From: Burkholderia mayonis
Lineage (GTDB): Bacteria > Pseudomonadota > Gammaproteobacteria > Burkholderiales > Burkholderiaceae
Reading direction: 5' to 3'
Length of the DNA stretch: 64,000 nucleotides
Assembly: GCF_001523745.2 (NCBI RefSeq)
Contig: NZ_CP013386.1
Span: 1,736,001 to 1,800,000, forward strand
This document shows positions 22,249 through 32,619 of the stretch, piece after piece (position 1 is the stretch's first letter; every line of letters begins with the position of its first letter). The notes under the pieces are model-generated. The model was given only the letters and a program-made list of their open reading frames with translations. It was not told the DNA's origin and did no database searches. The position numbers were made by a program, and so were the translations under genes.

Positions 22249-24717
22249 GTGCGAATCAGACCTTCCTTCTTCTGCGTGTCCATGCTGGTCGCCGGCAGCC
22301 ATGCCCAGGCGACGGAGTTCAATTCGTCGTTCCTGAGCATCGACGGCGCGAACGACGTCGACCTGTCGCAGTTCTCGCAGGCGGACTTCACGCTGCCGGG
22401 CACGTATCTGCTCGACGTGCAGGTCAATGACGTGTTCTACGGCCTCCAGCAGGTCGAATTCGTCGCGCAGCACGAAGGGGACGGCGCGCGCGCATGCATC
22501 ACGCCCGAACTCGTTGCGCAGTTCGGCCTGAAGCAGTCGCTCGTCAATGACATGCCGCGCTTCATGGGCGGCCGCTGCGCGGATCTCGCCGCGATCGAAG
22601 GCGTGACGATCCGCTATCAGAAGGGCGAAGGGCGCCTGAAGATCACGATTCCGCAAGCCGCGCTCGAATTCACCGACGCGTCGTACCTGCCGCCCGAGCG
22701 CTGGAGCGAAGGCGTCGACGGCGCAATGCTCGACTATCGCTTGCTCGCGAACGCGAATCACGCGTTCGGCGGCGGCGCGCAGCAGAACAACTCGGTGCAG
22801 GCGTACGGCACAATCGGCGCGAACTGGGGCGCGTGGCGCTTTCGCGGCGACTATCAGGCGCAGACGAACGCGGGCGGCTCCGTCTACGCGGATCGCACGT
22901 TCCGCTTCAATCAGCTCTATGCGTACCGCGCGCTGCCGTCGCTGCAGTCGACGCTGTCGTTCGGCGAGATCTACGTCGATTCGGACATCTTCAGCACGTT
23001 CTCGATGTCGGGCGTCGCGATGAAGAGCGACGACCGGATGCTGCCGCCGTCGATGCGCGGCTACGCGCCGCTCGTCGCGGGCGTCGCGCGCACGAACGCG
23101 GTCGTCAAGGTGATGCAGGCCGGCCGCGTGCTGTACATGACGAAGGTGTCGCCCGGCGCGTTCGCGCTGTCGAATCTCAATACGAGCGTGCAGGGCACGC
23201 TCGACGTCGTCGTCGAGGAAGAGGACGGCTCCGTCCAGCGCTTCCAGGTCGCGACCGCATCGGTGCCGTTTCTCGCGCGCGAAGGCCAGTTGCGCTACAA
23301 GACCGCGATCGGCAAGCCGCGCACGTTCGGCGGCGCGGGCATCACGCCGTGGTTCGGCTTTGCCGAGGCTGCGTACGGGCTGCCGTTCGACGTGACCGTG
23401 TACGGCGGTCTCATCGCGGCGTCCGGCTATACGTCGGTCGCGTTCGGCATCGGCCGCGACTTCGGCCGCTTCGGCGCGCTGTCGGCGGACATCACGCACG
23501 CGCGCGCGACGCTCTGGTGGAACGGCCAGACGAAGCAGGGCAACTCGTATCGCATCAACTATTCGAAGCACTTCGACGCGCTCGACGCCGACGTGCGCTT
23601 CTTCGGCTATCGCTTCTCGGAGCGCGACTACACGAATTTCCAGCAGTTCTCGGGCGACCCGACCGCGTCCGGCCTCGCGAACGGCAAGCAGCGTTATTCG
23701 GCGATGCTGTCCAAGCGCTTCGGCGATACGTCGACCTATTTCTCGTACGACCAGACGACCTACTGGTCGCGTCCGTCCGATCAGCGGATCGGCGTGACGC
23801 TCACGCGCGCGTTCTCGCTCGGCGGGCTGAAGAGCGTGAACATGAGCTTCTCCGCGTTCCGCACGCAAGGCGCGGGCGGCGGCGGCAACCAGGTGTCGCT
23901 AACGGCGACGCTGCCGCTCGGCGAGCGCCAGACGCTCACGTCGAGCGTGTCGACGGGCCAGGGCGGCACGAGCGTGAACGCGGGCTACATCTACGACGGC
24001 ATGAACGGCCGCACTTATCAGGTGTACGGCGGCGCGACCGACGGCCGTGCGTCCGCGAACGCGAGCTTCCGCCAGCGCACGCCGTCTTACCAGTTGACCG
24101 CGCAGGCGTCGACGGTCGCGAACGCGTACGCGTCGGCGTCGCTCGAAGTCGACGGCTCGTTCGTCGCGACGCGCTACGGCGTGACCGCGCACGCGAACGG
24201 CAACGCGGGCGACACGCGTCTGCTCGTATCGACCGACGGCGTGCCCGGCGTGCCGCTCGCCGGCTCGTATGCACGCACCGATTCGCGCGGCTACGCGGTG
24301 ATCGACGGCGTATCGCCGTACAACGTGTACGACGCGACCGTGAGCGTCGACAAGCTCGGCCTCGACACCGAAGTGACGAACCCGATCCAGCGCACCGTGC
24401 TGACGGACGGCGCGATTGGCTACATCAAGTTCAACGCGGCGCGCGGGCGCAACGTGTTCGTCACGCTGACGGGCGACGACGGCGCGCCGGTGCCGTTCGG
24501 CGCGTCGGTGCAGGACGCCGAGACCGGCAAGGAGCTCGGCATCGTCGGCGAGGCAGGGGCCGCGTACCTGACGCAGGTGCAGCCGCGCGCGAAGCTCGTC
24601 GTGCGCGCCGGCGCGAAGACGATCTGCACGCCCGCCGCGCTTCCCGACACGTTGCAGCTCGACGGCACGCCCGCGCCCGTCGGCTGCGAATCCGCGACGC
24701 AGCACGCGTCGCGCTGA
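22249..24717 (+). CDS. Fimbrial outer-membrane usher (FimD/PapC family)
   Basis: An 822-residue usher, normal for the family. The start is GTG 22249, giving a short signal peptide (hydrophobic FFCVSMLVAGS, cleavage after HAQA) before TEFNSSFLSIDGANDVDLSQF, the classic usher N-terminal domain. No strong ribosome site is seen, so the start is the least sure part. The barrel region contains PSLQSTLSFGEIYVDSDIFS and MLPPSMRGYAPLVAGVARTN. The C-terminal domain has the strand GRNVFVTLTGDDGAPVPFGA. It assembles subunits delivered by the chaperone encoded next. Confidence 0.92.
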   Translation: MRIRPSFFCVSMLVAGSHAQATEFNSSFLSIDGANDVDLSQFSQADFTLPGTYLLDVQVNDVFYGLQQVEFVAQHEGDGARACITPELVAQFGLKQSLVNDMPRFMGGRCADLAAIEGVTIRYQKGEGRLKITIPQAALEFTDASYLPPERWSEGVDGAMLDYRLLANANHAFGGGAQQNNSVQAYGTIGANWGAWRFRGDYQAQTNAGGSVYADRTFRFNQLYAYRALPSLQSTLSFGEIYVDSDIFSTFSMSGVAMKSDDRMLPPSMRGYAPLVAGVARTNAVVKVMQAGRVLYMTKVSPGAFALSNLNTSVQGTLDVVVEEEDGSVQRFQVATASVPFLAREGQLRYKTAIGKPRTFGGAGITPWFGFAEAAYGLPFDVTVYGGLIAASGYTSVAFGIGRDFGRFGALSADITHARATLWWNGQTKQGNSYRINYSKHFDALDADVRFFGYRFSERDYTNFQQFSGDPTASGLANGKQRYSAMLSKRFGDTSTYFSYDQTTYWSRPSDQRIGVTLTRAFSLGGLKSVNMSFSAFRTQGAGGGGNQVSLTATLPLGERQTLTSSVSTGQGGTSVNAGYIYDGMNGRTYQVYGGATDGRASANASFRQRTPSYQLTAQASTVANAYASASLEVDGSFVATRYGVTAHANGNAGDTRLLVSTDGVPGVPLAGSYARTDSRGYAVIDGVSPYNVYDATVSVDKLGLDTEVTNPIQRTVLTDGAIGYIKFNAARGRNVFVTLTGDDGAPVPFGASVQDAETGKELGIVGEAGAAYLTQVQPRAKLVVRAGAKTICTPAALPDTLQLDGTPAPVGCESATQHASR

Positions 24718-24739
24718 CCGACCTGACCGACTCGACACG

Positions 24740-25489
24740 ATGATGAACATGACCACACGATGCCTTTCCGCTTCGAACGCACGGCGCATGGCCGCCGCGC
24801 TCCTCGCCGCGCTCGCGGGCGCCGCGCACGCGGCGATCGTGCCGGACCGCACCCGCGTGATCCTCAACGAAGGCGAGCAGGCCGCGATCGTGACGATCTC
24901 GAACAAGAGCGATGCGTATCCGTATCTCGTGCAGTCGTGGCTCGAAGACGAGCACGGCAACAAGATCACGACGCCGCTGATGGTCGTGCCGCCGCTGCAG
25001 CGCGTCGAGCCGAGCGAGCGCAACGTGCTGCGGATCGCGCGGATGCCGGGCGCCGCGCTGCCGGCCGATCGCGAATCGGTGTTCTATCTGAACATCCGCG
25101 AGGTGCCGCCGAAGACCGGCACGCCGAACGCGCTGCAGATCGCGCTGCACACGCAGATGAAACTGTTCTACCGGCCGGCGGGCGTCCAGCCCGCGCGCGA
25201 TGAGGACCCGACGCTGCCGATGACGTTGCGCGTCGATCCGGCCGCGCACCAGCTCGTATTCGACAACCCGACGCCGTATCACATCACGGTCGTTGCGCTC
25301 GCGGCGGGCGCGAACAAGACGCCGCAGCCGCTCGATCCGGTGATGGTGAATCCGAAGGGCGCGGCGAGCGTGCCGTTCTCGGCGTCGGCGGGCGGCGGCC
25401 TCCACGTCACGCACGTCGACGACTACGGCGGCCAGGTGACGGTCGAGTACGCGTGCGACGGCAATGCGTGCCGGAGCGTGAAGCGATGA
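24740..25489 (+). CDS. Periplasmic fimbrial chaperone (PapD family)
   Basis: A 249-residue periplasmic chaperone; signal peptide ends at AAHAA. The first domain shows DRTRVILNEGEQAAIVTISN, YLVQSWLED and the subunit-binding edge strand VFYLNIREVPPK. The second domain has QLVFDNPTPYHITVVAL and a late Cys pair (EYACDGNACRS). Two adjacent ATG codons (24740, 24743) are possible starts. Its stop overlaps the start of the next gene (ATGA), so translation is probably coupled. Confidence 0.92.
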   Translation: MMNMTTRCLSASNARRMAAALLAALAGAAHAAIVPDRTRVILNEGEQAAIVTISNKSDAYPYLVQSWLEDEHGNKITTPLMVVPPLQRVEPSERNVLRIARMPGAALPADRESVFYLNIREVPPKTGTPNALQIALHTQMKLFYRPAGVQPARDEDPTLPMTLRVDPAAHQLVFDNPTPYHITVVALAAGANKTPQPLDPVMVNPKGAASVPFSASAGGGLHVTHVDDYGGQVTVEYACDGNACRSVKR

Positions 25490-26511
25490 GCGCGTTCACT
25501 CGCTTCTTGCCGCGACGCATGCCCGGCTGGCTCGCGTGGGCCTGCGCGGCGCTCCTCGTCGCATTCGCTCAGCCCGCGTGGGCGGTGCGCTGCCTGACGA
25601 ACAGCGGCCAGACGTCGCTCACCGAGCCGATCGGCAACGTCGCGTCGTATCCGACCGACGCGCCCGACGGCTACGTGATCTGGATTTCGTCGCCGCGCAC
25701 GACGGACGGCTATTGCTACAAGGATCTCGGCGGCGCGGGCAATCTGAGCATCGTCGACAACATCTACTTCTACGCGAATCCGGACGGCAAGAATCCGGCC
25801 GCGTGGGGGCTCGAGATCGGCATCCGCTATCAGGGCGTCGACCACTTCGGCGCGGGCAGCCGTCCCGGCACCGGCGTGCCGACGGGCTTCGCCGTGCCGC
25901 CGTGCTCGCAGGCGGACTTCAACGCGAAGCGGTGCCCGAAGATTCCGATCAGCATCACGTACCAGGTGGTCGTGCGCAAGAAGGGCGCGTGGGTGCAGCC
26001 GCCGAGCGACGTGTACACGGTGTTCCAGTTCGACGGCGAGAAAGGCCTGAACAACACGAACCCGAGCTTCCAGTACCGGCTGAGCGGCCTGCAGAACCTG
26101 AAGCCGACGCCGTGCATGGTCGACGTGACGGTGACGCCCGAGCCGGGGATCGTGAAGTTCGGGCAGATCCAGGCGTCCGGCAACGGCTTTTCTCCTGCTG
26201 CGCCGCGCAAGCAGTTCAGCCTCGCGCTGACGAAGAAATGCAGCATACCGGTGCGCGTCGATGGCTACTTCGAGACCTCGCAGATCGTGCGCAACGGCCT
26301 GCTCGTGCCGCAGAGCGACAGCAATTTCGGGATCGGCATCGAGGACAAGAACGGCAATGCGATTCCGTTCAACCAGCAGTTCGTGCTCACGCAGATGCCG
26401 GGGAACGTGTCGTATCAGAACGTCGTGCTCGATGCGGTGCTGAAGTCGTTCGGCGCACCGAAGATCGGGCCGTTTACCGGGACGGCGACGATTCGGCTGT
26501 TCATCTACTGA
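25486..26511 (+). CDS. Fimbrial tip adhesin / minor subunit
   Basis: A 341-residue secreted protein starting at ATG 25486, four bases before the chaperone stop. The signal peptide ends AQPAWA. The N-terminal part (about 28-195) is a Cys-containing domain without family-wide motifs, likely the receptor-binding lectin domain. The C-terminal half (about 205-341) is a pilin domain: PTPCMVDVTVTPEPGIVKFG...FSLALTKKCSIPVRVDGYFE, ending TATIRLFIY with the terminal Tyr motif. Two-domain layout, length and last place in the operon fit a FimH-like tip adhesin. The ligand is unknown. Confidence 0.85.
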   Translation: MSAFTRFLPRRMPGWLAWACAALLVAFAQPAWAVRCLTNSGQTSLTEPIGNVASYPTDAPDGYVIWISSPRTTDGYCYKDLGGAGNLSIVDNIYFYANPDGKNPAAWGLEIGIRYQGVDHFGAGSRPGTGVPTGFAVPPCSQADFNAKRCPKIPISITYQVVVRKKGAWVQPPSDVYTVFQFDGEKGLNNTNPSFQYRLSGLQNLKPTPCMVDVTVTPEPGIVKFGQIQASGNGFSPAAPRKQFSLALTKKCSIPVRVDGYFETSQIVRNGLLVPQSDSNFGIGIEDKNGNAIPFNQQFVLTQMPGNVSYQNVVLDAVLKSFGAPKIGPFTGTATIRLFIY

Positions 26512-26574: not shown

Positions 26575-28329
26575 TCATGCGTTCGACACCGCAGGCTCGG
26601 GCTGGCGGCGCCAGAAGGTCCTGTATTCGTCGCAGGTATCGATGAGGCGCCGATGCGGACCTGCCGCGACGAGCCGCCCGGCGGACAGGAACAGCACCTG
26701 GTCGGCCGCCTCGACGTTCGCGATCCGATGGGTGATCAGCACGAGCGTCGTGCGCCTGCAAAGACGCTCGCGAAGCATCGCGATGCCGAGCGCGTCGCTT
26801 TGCGGATCGAGGCCCGACGTCGTTTCGTCGAGGACGATTGCGGGGACGTCGACGCCCATCAACCTGACGAGCTCGACCTTCTGCACCTGGCCGCCCGATA
26901 GGCGAGCGCCGCCTTCGCCGACATCGCCGTCGAGGTCGATGCGCCGCCCGTCCTTGTGGAACGCGAGGCGTTCGAGCAGTCGCGTCGCGTCGTCGTCGGT
27001 GAGCGTCGACGGGTAATAGCGGACGTTTTCCCGCAGCGGTCGGTTGAAGAGCGCGACGTCCTGCGGAACGTAGAGCGCGAAGCCGCTGCGCGCAGTGTCG
27101 TCGACGCCGTACAGGTCGACGTCGTCGTATGCGACGACGCCGTCGTCGGGCGGCAGCAGCCCGGCGACGATCTTCGCGAGCGTGGATTTGCCCGAGCCGT
27201 TGTGTCCGACGATCGCCGTGTAGCTGCCCGCCGGCAGGTCGAACGACATCGGTTCGATCGCGAAGCGATCCGCCCGGCGAAACGCTAGCCGGCGGACCGC
27301 GACGTGCGCGGCCGAGCCGCCCGGCTGCAGGCGGACAGCGTCGGCTGTGGCCGCCCGGGGGGCGATCTCGAGCGCTTCGCGCACGTTCGCGAGCGCCGCG
27401 CCAGCCTGGCGGAGCACGAATCCGTACGCGCCGAGCGGCAGCGCGAACTGCAGCACGTAGGTCTGCAGCAGCATGAAATCGCCGAGCGTGATCCGGCCGG
27501 CCGCGATGTCGCGCACGCACAGCACGAACATCGCCGCCATGCCGAACGCGATGATGCCGTACTGATAGACGGCCGCGCGCGTGAGCAGCCACGACCGCCG
27601 CCAGCCGACATCGAGCCGCGCGCCGGCTCTCGCCGCGACGTAGTCGATCTCCCGCTGCACCGCGCCGTTGTAGACGACGCGCGGTGCATTCGCGAGCACG
27701 TCGCCGAGCGCGGTCGACAGCGCGCCCGCGGCCTCGCTCGTCGCGGCCGCGCTCTTCTCGTATTGCTCGGCCGACAAGTGGGAGAACAGGAAATAGGCGG
27801 CCAGCACCGCGAACAGGATCGCGGCGTAGCGTAGCGGCACCAGCAGCGAAATCAGCACGAGCGCGACGGCGAGCTGGATCACGACGGGCGTGATCTTCCA
27901 CAGCACGCCTTCGATGATCACCTGAAGACTGTACGGCAAGCGTTCGAGGAGACCCTGCACATAGCCGCTGTCGGACGATGCGCGGCCGGCGAGCGCCGGG
28001 AGCTGCGCGTGCAGCGCGCGGCGCAGCAGCGCGTTCGACACGGCGTTGACGATCCGGCCGGTATACGCGAGCAGGATGATCGACGAGATCGCGGACGCGG
28101 ACCACAGCGCGGCGAACAGCACGATGTCGACGGACGCCTTCACGGCGTCGAAATGCGCGTGCGACATCTCGTCGACCGCGAGCTTCAACGTGACCGGGCC
28201 GAGCAGCATGAAAGTCGATGTCAGCGCCTCGATCAGCACGCCGGCGGCGATCAGCTTTCTCGCATTCGTTTCCTTGTCGAACATCAGGCGGACGACGTCC
28301 GCCAACGAGCGTAGCGCGGCAAGCTTCAT
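26575..28329 (-). CDS. capD: Capistruin ABC transporter (export/immunity)
   Basis: A 584-residue half-transporter with the permease first and the ATPase second. The permease (residues about 1-320) has six membrane segments, beginning IAAGVLIEALTSTFMLLGPV. The ATPase shows Walker A GHNGSGKST, signature LSGGQVQK, Walker B IVLDETTSGLDP and the switch His in ITHRIAN. I take ATG 28329 (MKLAALRSLAD). An in-frame TTG at 28476, overlapping capC, would add 49 residues of low-complexity sequence. It ends 63 bases from the convergent fimbrial operon. In lasso clusters this protein exports the mature peptide and gives self-immunity. Confidence 0.9.
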   Translation of the reverse strand: MKLAALRSLADVVRLMFDKETNARKLIAAGVLIEALTSTFMLLGPVTLKLAVDEMSHAHFDAVKASVDIVLFAALWSASAISSIILLAYTGRIVNAVSNALLRRALHAQLPALAGRASSDSGYVQGLLERLPYSLQVIIEGVLWKITPVVIQLAVALVLISLLVPLRYAAILFAVLAAYFLFSHLSAEQYEKSAAATSEAAGALSTALGDVLANAPRVVYNGAVQREIDYVAARAGARLDVGWRRSWLLTRAAVYQYGIIAFGMAAMFVLCVRDIAAGRITLGDFMLLQTYVLQFALPLGAYGFVLRQAGAALANVREALEIAPRAATADAVRLQPGGSAAHVAVRRLAFRRADRFAIEPMSFDLPAGSYTAIVGHNGSGKSTLAKIVAGLLPPDDGVVAYDDVDLYGVDDTARSGFALYVPQDVALFNRPLRENVRYYPSTLTDDDATRLLERLAFHKDGRRIDLDGDVGEGGARLSGGQVQKVELVRLMGVDVPAIVLDETTSGLDPQSDALGIAMLRERLCRRTTLVLITHRIANVEAADQVLFLSAGRLVAAGPHRRLIDTCDEYRTFWRRQPEPAVSNA

Positions 28330-28462: not shown

Positions 28463-30205
28463 TCAGCATGCCACAACGCGCCGGTTCGCGACGAAATTCT
28501 GCCAGGATGCGCAAAAAACCTCCACGCACCCGACGAGCGCGAGGCTGATCGCGGCCGCGTTCTGACCGACGCGCACTGCCTTCAGCGCGTGCTCGAGTTC
28601 GGTTTCGTCGATCTTGCCGCTTCGCATCAGCACGCCGTCGCGGAGCAGTTCGCGAAATGCGTCGTAATGCGACACGATCCCTTTCACGAAGCCGATGCCG
28701 AACGATCCCTTGGTCCTTCGCCACAGCACGTCGACGGGAGTGTGCGCCGATGCGATCTCGCGCAGCACGATCCGGTCGTTCCGGTGATCGAAGCTGTCGT
28801 AGCTCCGAAGGCCGAAGGTCGCCTCGACGACCGGTTGCGCGAGATAGGGATTGAGCCGGCTCGTATACGCGGCGTCGGTGACGGGCGTCATGATCGACAC
28901 GAACCGGTCGAGCACCGAGATCGACTCGTCGGACGGGGTGTCCGCGCGGAGATCCCGCGGCGTGCGGGTGCGCGCCTGCCCGGCCGCCCCGCGCGACGCG
29001 AACAGCTTCGACATCGTCTGCTGCGACACCGAAGCGTCCTGCCCGAACAGCCGTCTTCTCAGCGCGATCTTCGCCGCCATCAGCAGAATGCGCGGGATCG
29101 AGTCGTTGTGAAGCATCGCGAGCTTCTCCGCCGTGCGAAGGGCGAACGACCATCCTTTGCCGTGAAGCGCGTCGAGCACCGCGTTCGCGTCCGGCACCGC
29201 CTTGAACAGCAGATCGCCGCCCTGGCCTTCGAGCAGCACCGACGACGGGCCGATCGCGCCCGATACCGCCTTGTCGATGCCGAGAAACAGCATGTCCTGG
29301 CTCAGGCTGGCGGGCGGCGTCCGCACGATCCGTTCGGAGAACGGCAAATGACGATCGATGTCGATGCAGATGAGTTCCGCGCCGATCGAATCGGCCACGC
29401 GCGCCGCCATGTCGCGCTCGTAGAAGTCGGGCGACGACGTGGAGAACAGGTGGACGGCGGCGAGCGGCGCATCTGCGCCGAGCGCCTTGCGCAGGAAGAT
29501 CGCGCCCGCGGACGAGTCGACGCCGCCCGACAGCGCGGCGCATACGTTCGGATGGCTGCGCGCAATGCTCGAATAGACGTCGTCGAGCGCCGCCGCGCAC
29601 GACGCGCGGACGTCGCCAACGGCGCCCGTGCGCGGAAGCCACGCGCGCTCGATCGTGCATCGCCCGTCGGTGTCGACGATGAGCGCGCATCCGGGCGGCA
29701 CGGCGCGGACCGACGCGAAAGGCGTTTCGTCAAGCGGGCCGAACTGCGTGCACGCGAATTCGATCAGGTAGTCCAGGTTCCAGTCGATCGGCGCGCCGTC
29801 GAGCAGGTTCGCCGCCTGCGGATCGACGTCGACGCGACCGTTCCCGGCCGCCCGGTAATAGAGCCGGACCGAATGCAGCGGGTCGGGCAGGAACAGCCGG
29901 CGACCGGTCGCCGCTTCGTCGAGCACGAGGATGTAGGCGCCCCAGACGCCGCGCGTGACGACGTCGCGCGCGTCGGTCAGCGTGCGGGCGCGCGCGAGCG
30001 CGCGATCGAGGCTCGAGTGCGCGTCGCGGAGGTACGCGCGGCCGCCGACTTCGAGCAACGTCGCGCCGATCGGCCGATCGGGTCCGCTGTTGCAGGACAG
30101 CAGACCGCGATATCCGACCGCGTCCGTCCACGCGCGCCGTTCAAGCCGCCAGCCCGACCGGGGCGGCGCGTTCGTCAGGTCGAGGCGTTCGATAGATTTC
30201 GCCAT
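28463..30205 (-). CDS. capC: Capistruin lasso cyclase (asparagine-synthetase-like)
   Basis: A 580-residue AsnB homologue that activates the core Asp side chain with ATP and closes the macrolactam with Gly1. The N-terminal part is the relic glutaminase-like domain and lacks the catalytic N-terminal Cys (starts MAKSIERLDL). The synthetase half carries the PP-loop SGGVDSSAGAIF (about residues 220-231) and downstream RLNPYLAQPVVEA. ATG 30205 has an AAGAGC ribosome site. Its first 65 bases overlap the end of capB in another frame, suggesting translational coupling. Confidence 0.93.
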   Translation of the reverse strand: MAKSIERLDLTNAPPRSGWRLERRAWTDAVGYRGLLSCNSGPDRPIGATLLEVGGRAYLRDAHSSLDRALARARTLTDARDVVTRGVWGAYILVLDEAATGRRLFLPDPLHSVRLYYRAAGNGRVDVDPQAANLLDGAPIDWNLDYLIEFACTQFGPLDETPFASVRAVPPGCALIVDTDGRCTIERAWLPRTGAVGDVRASCAAALDDVYSSIARSHPNVCAALSGGVDSSAGAIFLRKALGADAPLAAVHLFSTSSPDFYERDMAARVADSIGAELICIDIDRHLPFSERIVRTPPASLSQDMLFLGIDKAVSGAIGPSSVLLEGQGGDLLFKAVPDANAVLDALHGKGWSFALRTAEKLAMLHNDSIPRILLMAAKIALRRRLFGQDASVSQQTMSKLFASRGAAGQARTRTPRDLRADTPSDESISVLDRFVSIMTPVTDAAYTSRLNPYLAQPVVEATFGLRSYDSFDHRNDRIVLREIASAHTPVDVLWRRTKGSFGIGFVKGIVSHYDAFRELLRDGVLMRSGKIDETELEHALKAVRVGQNAAAISLALVGCVEVFCASWQNFVANRRVVAC

Positions 30206-30860
30206 AGCTCTTTTTCAGGTCCGGTTCGTCGCCGCACACGCGCCCGTCGACTTCGACCCAAGCATGGGCGATGAACGGCATCGGCCTCACGCCGATCACG
30301 AGTTGAGCGGGCACGCTCTCCCGCCTCAGATGCGTGGCGAGCGCGAGCGACATTTGCAGGCATGTGATGCGAAAGGGCGACCAGATCGACGCGCGCAGAT
30401 AGCGCTCGACCGTTTGCGACGAGCCGTCGCCGTCCGTGGACGCGGCGTTCGCGGGACGGGCGTCGAGCCGATCGAGTGCGGAAAGTGCGTGAAAACCGCG
30501 CATCTTGAGCGACGCCGCGCTGCGCACGATGCGCCAGAACGGCAGCCATTCGAAACGGGAAGTGCTCCGCTCGCCGAGCACCCGGCTTGCCCATATGCCC
30601 GACTCGAATGCGTCGAAGCGCCACGCGCGGTAATCGGCGATGCGGCTTCGGGCGGGCTCCGGCGATTCGGCGACGATGATCCGGTCGTCAATCAACGGCT
30701 TCAATGCGCGCGATGTATCGACCGGCTTGAAATCCAGATAATGGTCGGCAAAAGCACTCGCGCATGCTTCGTCATAAAGAAAATATCGTGACCGCCGCAT
30801 ATCGAGCGCGACGATCGCCTGGTCGAATACCGCGATATGGCAATGGCGGGCTAGCATCAT
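30141..30860 (-). CDS. capB: Capistruin leader peptidase with fused recognition domain
   Basis: A 239-residue B protein in the single-chain form typical of proteobacterial lasso clusters. The N-terminal 80 or so residues are the leader-recognition (RRE-like) part. The C-terminal part is transglutaminase-like, with catalytic Cys167 (FRITCLQM), His199 (FIAHAW) and a nearby Asp. It cleaves the CapA leader after the Thr-His pair and works with CapC. Two adjacent ATG codons (30860, 30857) follow GGAAAACC, the start signal that is partly buried in the hairpin at 30871-30895. Confidence 0.93.
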   Translation of the reverse strand: MMLARHCHIAVFDQAIVALDMRRSRYFLYDEACASAFADHYLDFKPVDTSRALKPLIDDRIIVAESPEPARSRIADYRAWRFDAFESGIWASRVLGERSTSRFEWLPFWRIVRSAASLKMRGFHALSALDRLDARPANAASTDGDGSSQTVERYLRASIWSPFRITCLQMSLALATHLRRESVPAQLVIGVRPMPFIAHAWVEVDGRVCGDEPDLKKSYGEIYRTPRPDERAAPVGLAA

Positions 30861-30870
30861 GGTCGGTTTT

Positions 30871-30895
30871 CCGATGGGGCGAAATGCCCCATCGG
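30871..30895 (-). promoter_or_regulatory. Perfect hairpin between capA and capB
   Basis: CCGATGGGGC / GCCCCATCGG is a 10-bp perfect stem with a five-base loop, beginning 17 bases after the capA stop. No T tract follows. On the transcript strand its 3' arm ends in GG, which continues into the GGAAAACC preceding the capB ATG, so folding would mask the capB ribosome site. It could also protect a capA-only transcript from exonucleases. Either way precursor should exceed enzymes. Confidence 0.75.
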
Positions 30896-30911
30896 CTTTA
30901 CGAGACGCTAA

Positions 30912-31055
30912 TTAATTGAATCCGAAGCGCGAAATGACGCGGGCGTCCGGGGTTTGGAAGCCCGGCGTGCCGTGCGTCGAGGAAACCGCATCCAGGCTGA
31001 CGCCGTTGGAGCCTTGGATCGTGATGTGGAGAAGCTTCGCCAAAAGTCGAACCAT
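30912..31055 (-). CDS. capA: Capistruin lasso-peptide precursor
   Basis: A 47-codon gene with a strong AGGAGA five bases before ATG 31055. The product is a 28-residue leader starting MVRLLAKLLHITIQ and ending DAVSSTH, then the 19-residue core GTPGFQTPDARVISRFGFN. This is the capistruin core: Gly1 joins Asp9 to make a 9-membered ring and the tail threads through it. The penultimate leader residue is the Thr required by lasso peptidases. The leader differs from the B. thailandensis precursor as I remember it at about four positions (HITIQ here against RSTIH). Capistruin inhibits RNA polymerase of related bacteria. Confidence 0.96.
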   Translation of the reverse strand: MVRLLAKLLHITIQGSNGVSLDAVSSTHGTPGFQTPDARVISRFGFN

Positions 31056-31122
31056 TTTAATCTCCTAAAAAATATCGATTTAGCCGACCGCCTTTCATGA
31101 TAGTAAGGCGCCCGGCGTTAGG

Positions 31123-31151
31123 TTTATAGCATCACTTCGCAAGAAATTCAA
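31123..31151 (-). promoter_or_regulatory. capA promoter candidate
   Basis: On the minus strand TTGAAT (31151-31146), a 17-base spacer, then TATAAA (31128-31123). This would start transcription about 60 bases upstream of the capA ATG. Spacing and both boxes fit a sigma-70 promoter. Confidence 0.55.
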
Positions 31152-31629
31152 TCGGAATATTCTTTTCTCCATGGAAGCAGTTTTATATCTTCGAATTCGA
31201 TAATTTATCTCGAATGGACGATTTATCTTTGTTGAAAAATTGAAATCCGGATTTGTCGGCTTAATTCCGGAATTTGGAAACAAAATAAAACTCGCATTGC
31301 TTATCGGCGATCGTGCTCTCGCGATGACGGAGATCGGAGCGCCCGGCATCGTCAGGTCATCCCGCCGAACGGCCGAGCCGGCGATGCGTTGCCGCGCCGC
31401 AGGATGCGCGCAAGACCTGCTGCTTCGCACCAAATTTGACGCCTACGGCCTCCGCATTCATCCGAATTCAAAAAAATACCAGTCTGGTGTCTGATTTTTA
31501 GTGGCCGGCCGCATGTCCGGCGACTATCGTTCGCACTACACGAGACGAACGGCGGACAGCGTCGACCGATGCGTCCGCCGCATCGGACGAGCGGCGCGCG
31601 CGCCGTGGTCTGGAGAATAGGAGGAGCGA
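31152..31629 (+). other. AT-rich gap between the capistruin cluster and the AraC gene
   Basis: About 480 bases of lowered GC with no convincing gene. A 112-codon frame on the minus strand (31095-31433) lacks a ribosome site and family sequence. The right end supplies the AraC gene's ribosome site (AGGAGGAGC at 31619-31627). The drop in GC beside the lasso cluster is consistent with acquired DNA. Confidence 0.5.
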
Positions 31630-32619
31630 GTGCAGCCCGATCTCGAAGTCGTCGACGTACGCCGCGGCGAGTCGTTCAAGGCGTGGTCGCATGGCTACCC
31701 GTACCGCACCGTGCGGTGGCACTTTCATCCGGAATTCGAAGTGCATCTGATCGTCGAGACGACGGGCCAGATGTTCGTCGGCGACTACGTCGGCGGATTC
31801 GGGCCCGGCAATCTCGTGCTGATGGGGCCGAACCTGCCGCACAACTGGGTCAGCGACGTGCCGGAAGGCAGGACGATCGCCGAGCGCAATCTCGTCGTGC
31901 AGTTCGACCAGGCGTTCGTCGCGCGCTGCGCGGACAGCTTCATCGAGTGGCGGCACGTCGAAGGACTCCTCGCCGACGCGCGGCGCGGCGTGCAGTTCGG
32001 CGCGCGCACGAGCGATGCGGTCAAGCCGCTCTTCGCCGAGCTGATCCACGCGCGCGGGCTGCGGCGCATCGTGCTGTTCCTGTCGATGCTGCAGATCCTC
32101 GTCGACGCGACCGACCGCGAACTGCTCGCGAGTCCCGCGTATCAGGCCGATCCGTCGAGCTTCGCGTCGACCCGCATCAATCACGTGCTCGCGTACATCG
32201 GCAAGAACCTCGCGAACGAATTGCGCGAGACGGATCTCGCGCGGCTCGCCGGACAGAGCGTGAGCGCGTTCTCGCATTACTTCCGGCGGCACACGGGCTT
32301 GCCGTTCGTCCAGTACGTGAACCGGATGCGCATCAATCTGGCCTGCCAGTTGCTGATGGACGGCGACGCGAGCGTCACCGACATCTGCTTCAAGAGCGGC
32401 TTCAACAACCTGTCGAACTTCAATCGCCAGTTCCTCGCGGTGAAAGGAATGTCGCCGTCGCGCTTTCGCCGCTATCAGGCGCTGAACGACGCGAGCCGCG
32501 ACGCGTCGGAGGCGGCCGCGAAGCGCGGCGCGGGCATCGCCGGCGCGCCGGCGATCGTGCCCGCCGCGCAGGCGCGCGGCGCTACCCGTCCGATCCCCGA
32601 AGTCCTGCTGTCCGGCTGA
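31630..32619 (+). CDS. AraC-family transcriptional regulator of the sugar/polyol operon
   Basis: A 329-residue regulator starting at GTG 31630 behind AGGAGGAGCGA. The N-terminal cupin-like sensor (about 20-110) shows WHFHPEFEVHLI and MGPNLPHNWVSD. The C-terminal double helix-turn-helix (about 178-280) shows LARLAGQSVSAFSHYFRRHTG and VTDICFKSGFNNLSNFNRQF. A Pro/Ala-rich tail follows. It is on the same strand and immediately upstream of the ABC importer, so it very likely activates that operon in response to the imported sugar or polyol. Confidence 0.88.
   Translation: MQPDLEVVDVRRGESFKAWSHGYPYRTVRWHFHPEFEVHLIVETTGQMFVGDYVGGFGPGNLVLMGPNLPHNWVSDVPEGRTIAERNLVVQFDQAFVARCADSFIEWRHVEGLLADARRGVQFGARTSDAVKPLFAELIHARGLRRIVLFLSMLQILVDATDRELLASPAYQADPSSFASTRINHVLAYIGKNLANELRETDLARLAGQSVSAFSHYFRRHTGLPFVQYVNRMRINLACQLLMDGDASVTDICFKSGFNNLSNFNRQFLAVKGMSPSRFRRYQALNDASRDASEAAAKRGAGIAGAPAIVPAAQARGATRPIPEVLLSG

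What the first reader, a model, noticed from the sequence alone, without database searches (positions are those of the whole stretch)
30912..31055. Capistruin precursor with identical core but a variant leader
The small gene, too short for routine ORF calling, encodes the capistruin core GTPGFQTPDARVISRFGFN. The leader region around residues 10-14 reads HITIQ, where I recall RSTIH in B. thailandensis. Conserved leader ends (MVRLLAKLL and NGVSLDAVSSTH) flank the variable patch, suggesting which leader residues CapB and CapC do not need.
Basis: partly seen in the sequence, partly recalled or inferred. Interest (0 to 1): 0.75.

Follow-up and report, generated by a model that had tools for sequence, protein, structure and literature searches.

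The report
Capistruin precursor with drifting leader
A bacterium related to Burkholderia thailandensis carries the known genes for the antibiotic peptide capistruin, and the small differences in the discarded front part of its precursor look like ordinary drift in a stretch that also varies among its relatives.

Summary
On the minus strand at 30912-31055 lies a 47-codon capA whose 19-residue core is identical to published capistruin, followed by capB, capC and capD. The leader patch reads HITIQ. The RSTIH comparison with B. thailandensis E264 is recalled; no call returned the E264 record, but an exact RSTIH allele exists in a related genome. Among six alleles only H10 is private to this window: I11 and Q14 recur in others. 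The window genome lacks one published B. thailandensis probe site, so this is probably another species' allele. Across 9 CapA lineages the last 11 leader residues (GVSLDAVSSTH, except -4) are mostly constrained; everything upstream, including the supposedly conserved MVRLLAKLL end, drifts, and leaders run from 24 to 28 residues. That agrees with published microcin J25 work, in which most of the leader is dispensable. It does not show that CapB and CapC ignore the patch, since each leader has its own CapB (15-23% different from the window's). By-products: an A10N core variant, capistruin-like precursors in another genus and in Ensifer, and a conserved capA-capB hairpin. Ordinary overall: a natural allele of a known lasso peptide gene.

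The parts
30912..31055 (-). capA, capistruin precursor gene, 47 codons plus stop
   Evidence: relatives
30972..31055 (-). leader, residues 1-28 (positions -28 to -1), ending in Ser-Thr-His
   Evidence: Thr at -2 as in most lasso leaders (PMC11420955 and PMC10368454, passages)
31014..31028 (-). variable patch HITIQ, residues 10-14 (positions -19 to -15)
30915..30971 (-). core GTPGFQTPDARVISRFGFN; Gly1-Asp9 ring expected
30871..30895 (-). capA-capB intergenic hairpin, 10 pairs, 5-nt loop, no U tract
   Evidence: fold z -4.6; 3 of 10 pairs with changes on both sides over 5 sequences
31062..31066 (-). Shine-Dalgarno AGGAG of capA
   Evidence: read; present in 4 of 4 genomes aligned
31123..31151 (-). 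promoter-like TTGAAT-17-TATAAA upstream of capA, read by eye
   Evidence: both hexamers identical in 4 of 4 genomes; against: the consensus scan found no promoter
30141..30860 (-). capB, leader peptidase
   Evidence: NF033537 and PF13471 above cut-off; Cys167, His199, Asp211 invariant in 17 of 17
28463..30205 (-). capC, asparagine-synthetase-like cyclase; start overlaps the end of capB
   Evidence: PF00733 above cut-off; NCBIfam cyclase models only below cut-off
26575..28329 (-). capD, ABC exporter; start inferred from the G176 relative (open frame to 28476)
   Evidence: PF00005 above cut-off, PF00664 below its cut-off

Best explanation
This is a normal capistruin gene cluster (capABCD) of a pseudomallei-group Burkholderia that is probably not B. 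thailandensis. The precursor is translated from a good ribosome site; CapB binds about the last 11 leader residues and cuts after His(-1), CapC ties Gly1 to Asp9 around the tail, giving mature capistruin of the known sequence, and CapD exports it. The HITIQ patch lies upstream of the recognised segment, in a tether that tolerates replacement and shortening, so the product should be the same as from RSTIH leaders. Shown here: gene, core identity, cluster, conservation pattern, a shared chromosomal place in related genomes. Inferred: expression, CapB binding to -11 to -1, processing, identical product, species.
For: Core identical to capistruin. capB, capC, capD families in order. Shared chromosomal place in four genomes with gain or loss of neighbours. 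Residues 10-14 in 6 alleles: HITIQ, RSTIQ, RSTIH, RITAQ, RSTIH, RSTIH. Over 14 homologues S-3, T-2, H-1 are invariant; L-8 and V-5 in 13 of 14, the exception P0004 having a one-residue deletion. Leaders of 28 aa in 5, 27 aa in 6 and 24 aa in 3 of 14. In McjA only -12 to -10 line the RRE strand in an AF2 model, -37 to -13 show no obvious interaction, truncation of up to 28 N-terminal residues still gave detectable product, and Thr-2 sits in a pocket (PMC11420955: first two of five text parts and passages).
Against: No expression or mass data. The original capistruin leader and core studies (Knappe 2008, 2009; Pan 2012) were seen only as references; I did not look them up by id, so which capA leader residues were already mutated is unknown to me. 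The -11/-12 boundary used was chosen after seeing the alignment, and -4 inside the conserved segment is variable. The CapB structure job did not finish, and no model hit supports an N-terminal RRE in CapB. The species marker test had no known B. thailandensis genome as a positive control.
Confidence: 0.88

Rival explanations
1. The patch is not free: it co-evolves with its own CapB (or CapC), so HITIQ is matched to this genome's enzymes and would be processed poorly by E264 enzymes.
For: Window CapB is 77-85% identical to those of G042, G017 and G035 and evolves faster than flanking genes: dN 0.078 and 0.108 against G035 and G017, where two flanking genes have 0.022-0.033 (G042 lacks these flanks).
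Against: The CapB stretch that by analogy with McjB holds leader-binding strands (VALDxxRSRYFLYD) is the same in 7 of 7 close CapBs apart from the two x positions; the patch falls outside the contact region modelled for McjA (PMC11420955).
Confidence: 0.1
2. HITIQ is simply the reference form of the species sequenced, and the E264 RSTIH recollection is wrong or irrelevant. This is compatible with the main reading.
For: No call returned the E264 precursor; the window genome has no site for the B. thailandensis 70 kDa probe within 3 mismatches, so its own reference may well be HITIQ.
Against: RSTIH exists as a real allele in G017 and two database proteins, so the recollection is plausible.
Confidence: 0.3
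3. Codons 10-17 are shaped at the RNA level (for example early-codon structure) and not by the protein.
For: The three codons of the patch that code one residue in all four genomes (12, 15, 16) show no silent change, though three codons are too few to judge.
Against: The other codons change by one to three bases (CGT/CAC, TCG/ATC), so no fixed RNA sequence is kept. No RNA structure was sought there.
Confidence: 0.05

Closest known systems
Capistruin cluster capABCD of B. thailandensis E264 (BTH_I2437a, I2438-I2440; PMC6963729 passages)
   Same: Identical 19-residue core; same gene set; 47-residue precursor.
   Different: Leader patch HITIQ where E264 is recalled to have RSTIH; this genome appears not to be B. 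thailandensis by one marker.
   Same: 87-94% identical precursors; shared chromosomal place for the three genomes (not examined for P0003).
   Different: RSTIQ, RSTIH, RITAQ, RSTIH patches; G035 has Asn at core position 10.
Microcin J25 (mcjABCD)
   Same: Four-gene layout, Thr at -2, leader N-terminus largely dispensable (PMC11420955).
   Different: Leader 37 residues, core 21 residues with a Gly1-Glu8 ring.
Distant capistruin-like precursors (G176, P0023-P0029)
   Same: Leader end L-[DN]-[AI]-V-x-S-T-H and core start G-x-PGFQ-x-x-D in 8 of 8.

Membership tests
Lasso peptide, capistruin type | Core with Gly1 and Asp at ring position 9 | tested here: met
   GTPGFQTPD...; identical to capistruin
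Lasso peptide, capistruin type | Thr at leader position -2 | tested here: met
   (14 of 14)
Lasso peptide, capistruin type | B protein with transglutaminase-like Cys-His-Asp peptidase | tested here: met
   NF033537, PF13471; C167, H199, D211 invariant in 17 of 17; triad assigned by analogy
Lasso peptide, capistruin type | RRE domain in the N-terminus of the B protein | tested here: inconclusive
   no Pfam or NCBIfam hit to residues 1-100; structure job unfinished
Lasso peptide, capistruin type | Asparagine-synthetase-like cyclase C | tested here: met
   PF00733 62.8 bits, cut-off 21; NCBIfam lasso cyclase models below cut-off
Lasso peptide, capistruin type | ABC exporter D | tested here: met
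   PF00005 82.7 bits, cut-off 25; PF00664 22.7 bits is below its cut-off of 28
Lasso peptide, capistruin type | Threaded, dehydrated product | not testable with these tools
   needs mass spectrometry or NMR

The most novel reading that the evidence does not exclude
Capistruin belongs to a wider natural family of lasso peptides, reaching another Burkholderiaceae genus and Ensifer, in which a nearly fixed 11-residue leader address is joined to a freely evolving, length-variable tether, and the core keeps its ring while tail and plug residues change; it is a ready series for finding the minimal CapB address and new antibacterial cores.
Probability: 0.5. Interest if true: 0.4.

Novelty: new member of a known kind. 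Interest (0 to 1): 0.2.

Why it matters
By itself little: the mature antibiotic should be unchanged capistruin. The wider comparison gives a natural map of the leader, the last 11 residues nearly fixed and the rest loose, which predicts the minimal substrate for CapB, a fused B protein of the kind whose precursor recognition a 2019 review (PMC6784204, passages) says had not been investigated in detail. It also points to capistruin-like cores that I did not find in the held papers.

Tried and rejected
Significance of the patch from close alleles alone: 8 variable columns among 5 distinct 47-aa alleles (P0004 dropped for its deletion), 5 of them in columns 10-17; hypergeometric 0.0019 for the whole precursor and 0.011 in the leader, but the stretch was chosen after seeing it; scan-corrected 0.036 and 0.115. 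I therefore rely on the wider family.

Plasmid or phage origin: no capA on plasmids, only distant B proteins (52 records, best places all under 60% identity); no phage match to 20000-44000 by megablast; none in viral contigs for CapB. Rejected.

Weak profile hits: in the family scan 58 of 398 genomes match at E <= 0.1, but only 5 (G000, G042, G017, G035, G176) are stronger than 0.002; the other 53 I treated as chance and dropped. With CapB, 20 of 398 match at E <= 1e-10; 5 have 53-100% identity, the other 15 have 26-46%. In the genus of G176 only G176 itself of 11 has the precursor.

Rfam: no family at gathering score in 30000-31700. Solved structures: none for CapA, no credible one for CapB. 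CapB fold: job accepted, not finished.

Full report
Observation. The minus strand at 30912-31055 encodes a 47-residue protein, MVRLLAKLLHITIQGSNGVSLDAVSSTH followed by GTPGFQTPDARVISRFGFN. The last 19 residues are the published capistruin sequence (PMC6963729, passages; PMC12427821, passages). The precursor length of 47 residues also matches. Downstream on the same strand lie capB (30141-30860), capC (28463-30205) and capD (26575 to about 28329), recognised by Pfam models and, for capB, an NCBIfam model above cut-off. There is one copy in the genome, on a 3.84 Mb replicon of a 6.59 Mb two-contig assembly.

Relatives. A protein search found three close relatives: P0002 (91%), P0003 (87%, named B. 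pseudomallei) and P0004 (87%). Among 65 genus genomes 4 carry the gene, the window's own included. G017 may be B. humptydooensis, from size and replicon number only (PMC5311406 Table 3, passages); this is inference.

The variant residues. Residues 10-14 read HITIQ here, RSTIQ in G042, RSTIH in G017, RITAQ in G035 (identical to P0002), RSTIH in P0003 and RSTIH in P0004. So I11 is shared with G035 and Q14 with G042 and G035; only H10 is private to the window among these six alleles. P0002 and P0003 stand for clusters of 6 and 7 sequences whose other members I did not see.

Species. A published B. thailandensis-specific probe (70 kDa gene; PMC5063335, passages) has no site in G000 within 3 mismatches; 1 of 65 genomes (G038) has one with 2 mismatches. 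One oligonucleotide is a weak test, and no genome known to be B. thailandensis was among the 65 as a positive control. Window CapB is 83% identical to the B. pseudomallei CapB P0009 and 86% to that of B. oklahomensis, P0006 (alignment identities; the search gives 82 and 86). The window is therefore probably from another member of the pseudomallei group, and its leader is that species' allele.

Is the patch really loose? In the four genomes with DNA, codons 10-17 changed only by replacement in all six pairwise comparisons, and codons 18-28 only silently in five, the sixth pair (G017 and G035) being identical there. Nei-Gojobori estimates for codons 10-17 give dN 0.22-0.30 against dS 0.20-0.32 with the window, and dN of 0 for codons 18-28 in all three comparisons. 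The samples are 8 and 11 codons, and the dS in the patch comes only from steps within codons that also change the residue, so it is rough. With close alleles alone the clustering inside the leader is not significant after correcting for choice of the stretch (p 0.115).

The wider family decides it better. A profile search in the family found a distant capA in another genus (G176, E 6e-14), MLRLFRMFFGLTAGISLNAVTSTH + GRPGFQTPDGRVVSRTGLK, next to a 53% identical CapB. A database search with the enlarged alignment added seven more, P0023-P0029. Anchored at the cut site, 14 homologues have S-3, T-2 and H-1 in all; V-5 and L-8 in 13; A-6 in 12. Positions -12, -14, -15, -16, -18 and -19 each hold six to eight different residues. 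Leaders are 28 residues in 5, 27 in 6 and 24 in 3 of the 14. With one pseudomallei-group row and eight distant rows the mean entropy is 0.66 bits at -1 to -11 and 2.04 at -12 to -23; shuffled position labels reach this in about 1 in 10,000 (20,000 shuffles), though the boundary was set after seeing the alignment. Position -4 is a variable exception inside the conserved segment, with six residue types.

The N-terminal end MVRLLAKLL is well conserved only among near relatives; elsewhere it drifts, keeping a hydrophobic and basic flavour.

How it works. In microcin J25 an AF2 model with mutant tests places McjA -12 to -10 along the RRE strand of McjB, shows no obvious interaction for -37 to -13, and puts Thr-2 in a pocket; truncating up to 28 N-terminal residues still gave detectable product (PMC11420955, first two of five text parts and passages). 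A review describes an I/V/LxxxA motif in proteobacterial leaders (PMC6784204, passages), which CapA meets as V-10..A-6. By analogy the CapA address is about -11 to -1 and the HITIQ patch at -19 to -15 is tether. CapB's Cys167, His199 and Asp211, the presumed triad, are invariant in 17 of 17 aligned proteins. The RRE of CapB was not detected by models, and the structure job did not finish.

Limits of the inference. Each natural leader is paired with its own CapB (77-85% identical to the window's), so tolerance by a single enzyme is not shown. Cross-processing is needed.

Inheritance. The cluster sits in a corresponding chromosomal place in the four genomes: an RND efflux and outer-membrane block (window 13.7-20.2 kb; matched in G042 and G017; the G035 stretch fetched reaches only to window 21.9 kb, so it was not seen there), a fimbrial usher block present in the window and G035 but not at that place in G017 and G042, then cap, then an araC and sugar ABC operon not found beside cap in G042, where the window's 41 kb region follows. 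This fits vertical descent with neighbour turnover. No phage or plasmid link was found.

RNA hairpin. Between capA and capB there is a 10-pair hairpin (30871-30895; fold z -4.6). The fold is less striking in two relatives (z -1.7 in G042, with 13 of 200 shuffles folding as well, and -2.1 in G176, with 6). In four genomes 95% of cells pair and 2 pairs change on both sides, which 60 of 500 shuffles reach, so that alone is weak. With G176 added, 96% pair and 3 pairs change on both sides (6 of 500 shuffles); sliding the partners drops pairing to 32-50%, though a slide of +1 still shows 2 pairs with changes on both sides. It lacks a U tract, and the terminator scan found none. It may hold CapB translation or message below CapA; replacing this intergenic region by a Shine-Dalgarno sequence, together with an inducible promoter, raised capistruin yield in E. 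coli (PMC7549694, passages). This is inferred, and hairpin removal is already a known step for another lasso cluster (astexin-1).

Verdict. A real, correctly spotted natural allele of the capistruin precursor; mature product expected unchanged; interpretation half right and in line with what is known of microcin J25 leaders. Interest is low; the distant homologues are the better lead. In two searches of the held library for core strings the A10N core and other cores with PGFQTPD were not found; the only two papers with that string print it as capistruin; most subscription papers are not held.

Noticed in passing
L004:1501-1641 (G035), protein P0002: Natural capistruin core variant with Asn at position 10 (GTPGFQTPDNRVISRFGFN) and leader RITAQ; not found as a string in held papers.
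   Followed up: partly
L009:1498-1626 (-), L035: Capistruin-like precursor in another Burkholderiaceae genus with a 24-residue leader and core GRPGFQTPDGRVVSRTGLK; its capC lies in two frames in the draft.
   Followed up: partly
P0023-P0029: Seven further distant capistruin-like precursors, one named Ensifer sp. ENS06 and six without an organism name, with varied core tails.
   Followed up: partly
window 30871-30895: Conserved capA-capB hairpin with changes on both sides of 3 of 10 pairs over five sequences.
   Followed up: yes
window 22249-26511: Chaperone-usher fimbria-like block beside the cap cluster in the window and G035, not at that place in G017 and G042 (named by eye).
   Followed up: no
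P0004: Database capA allele lacking one Ser just before STH, the only length change in the otherwise fixed address segment among the 14; may be an assembly error.
   Followed up: no
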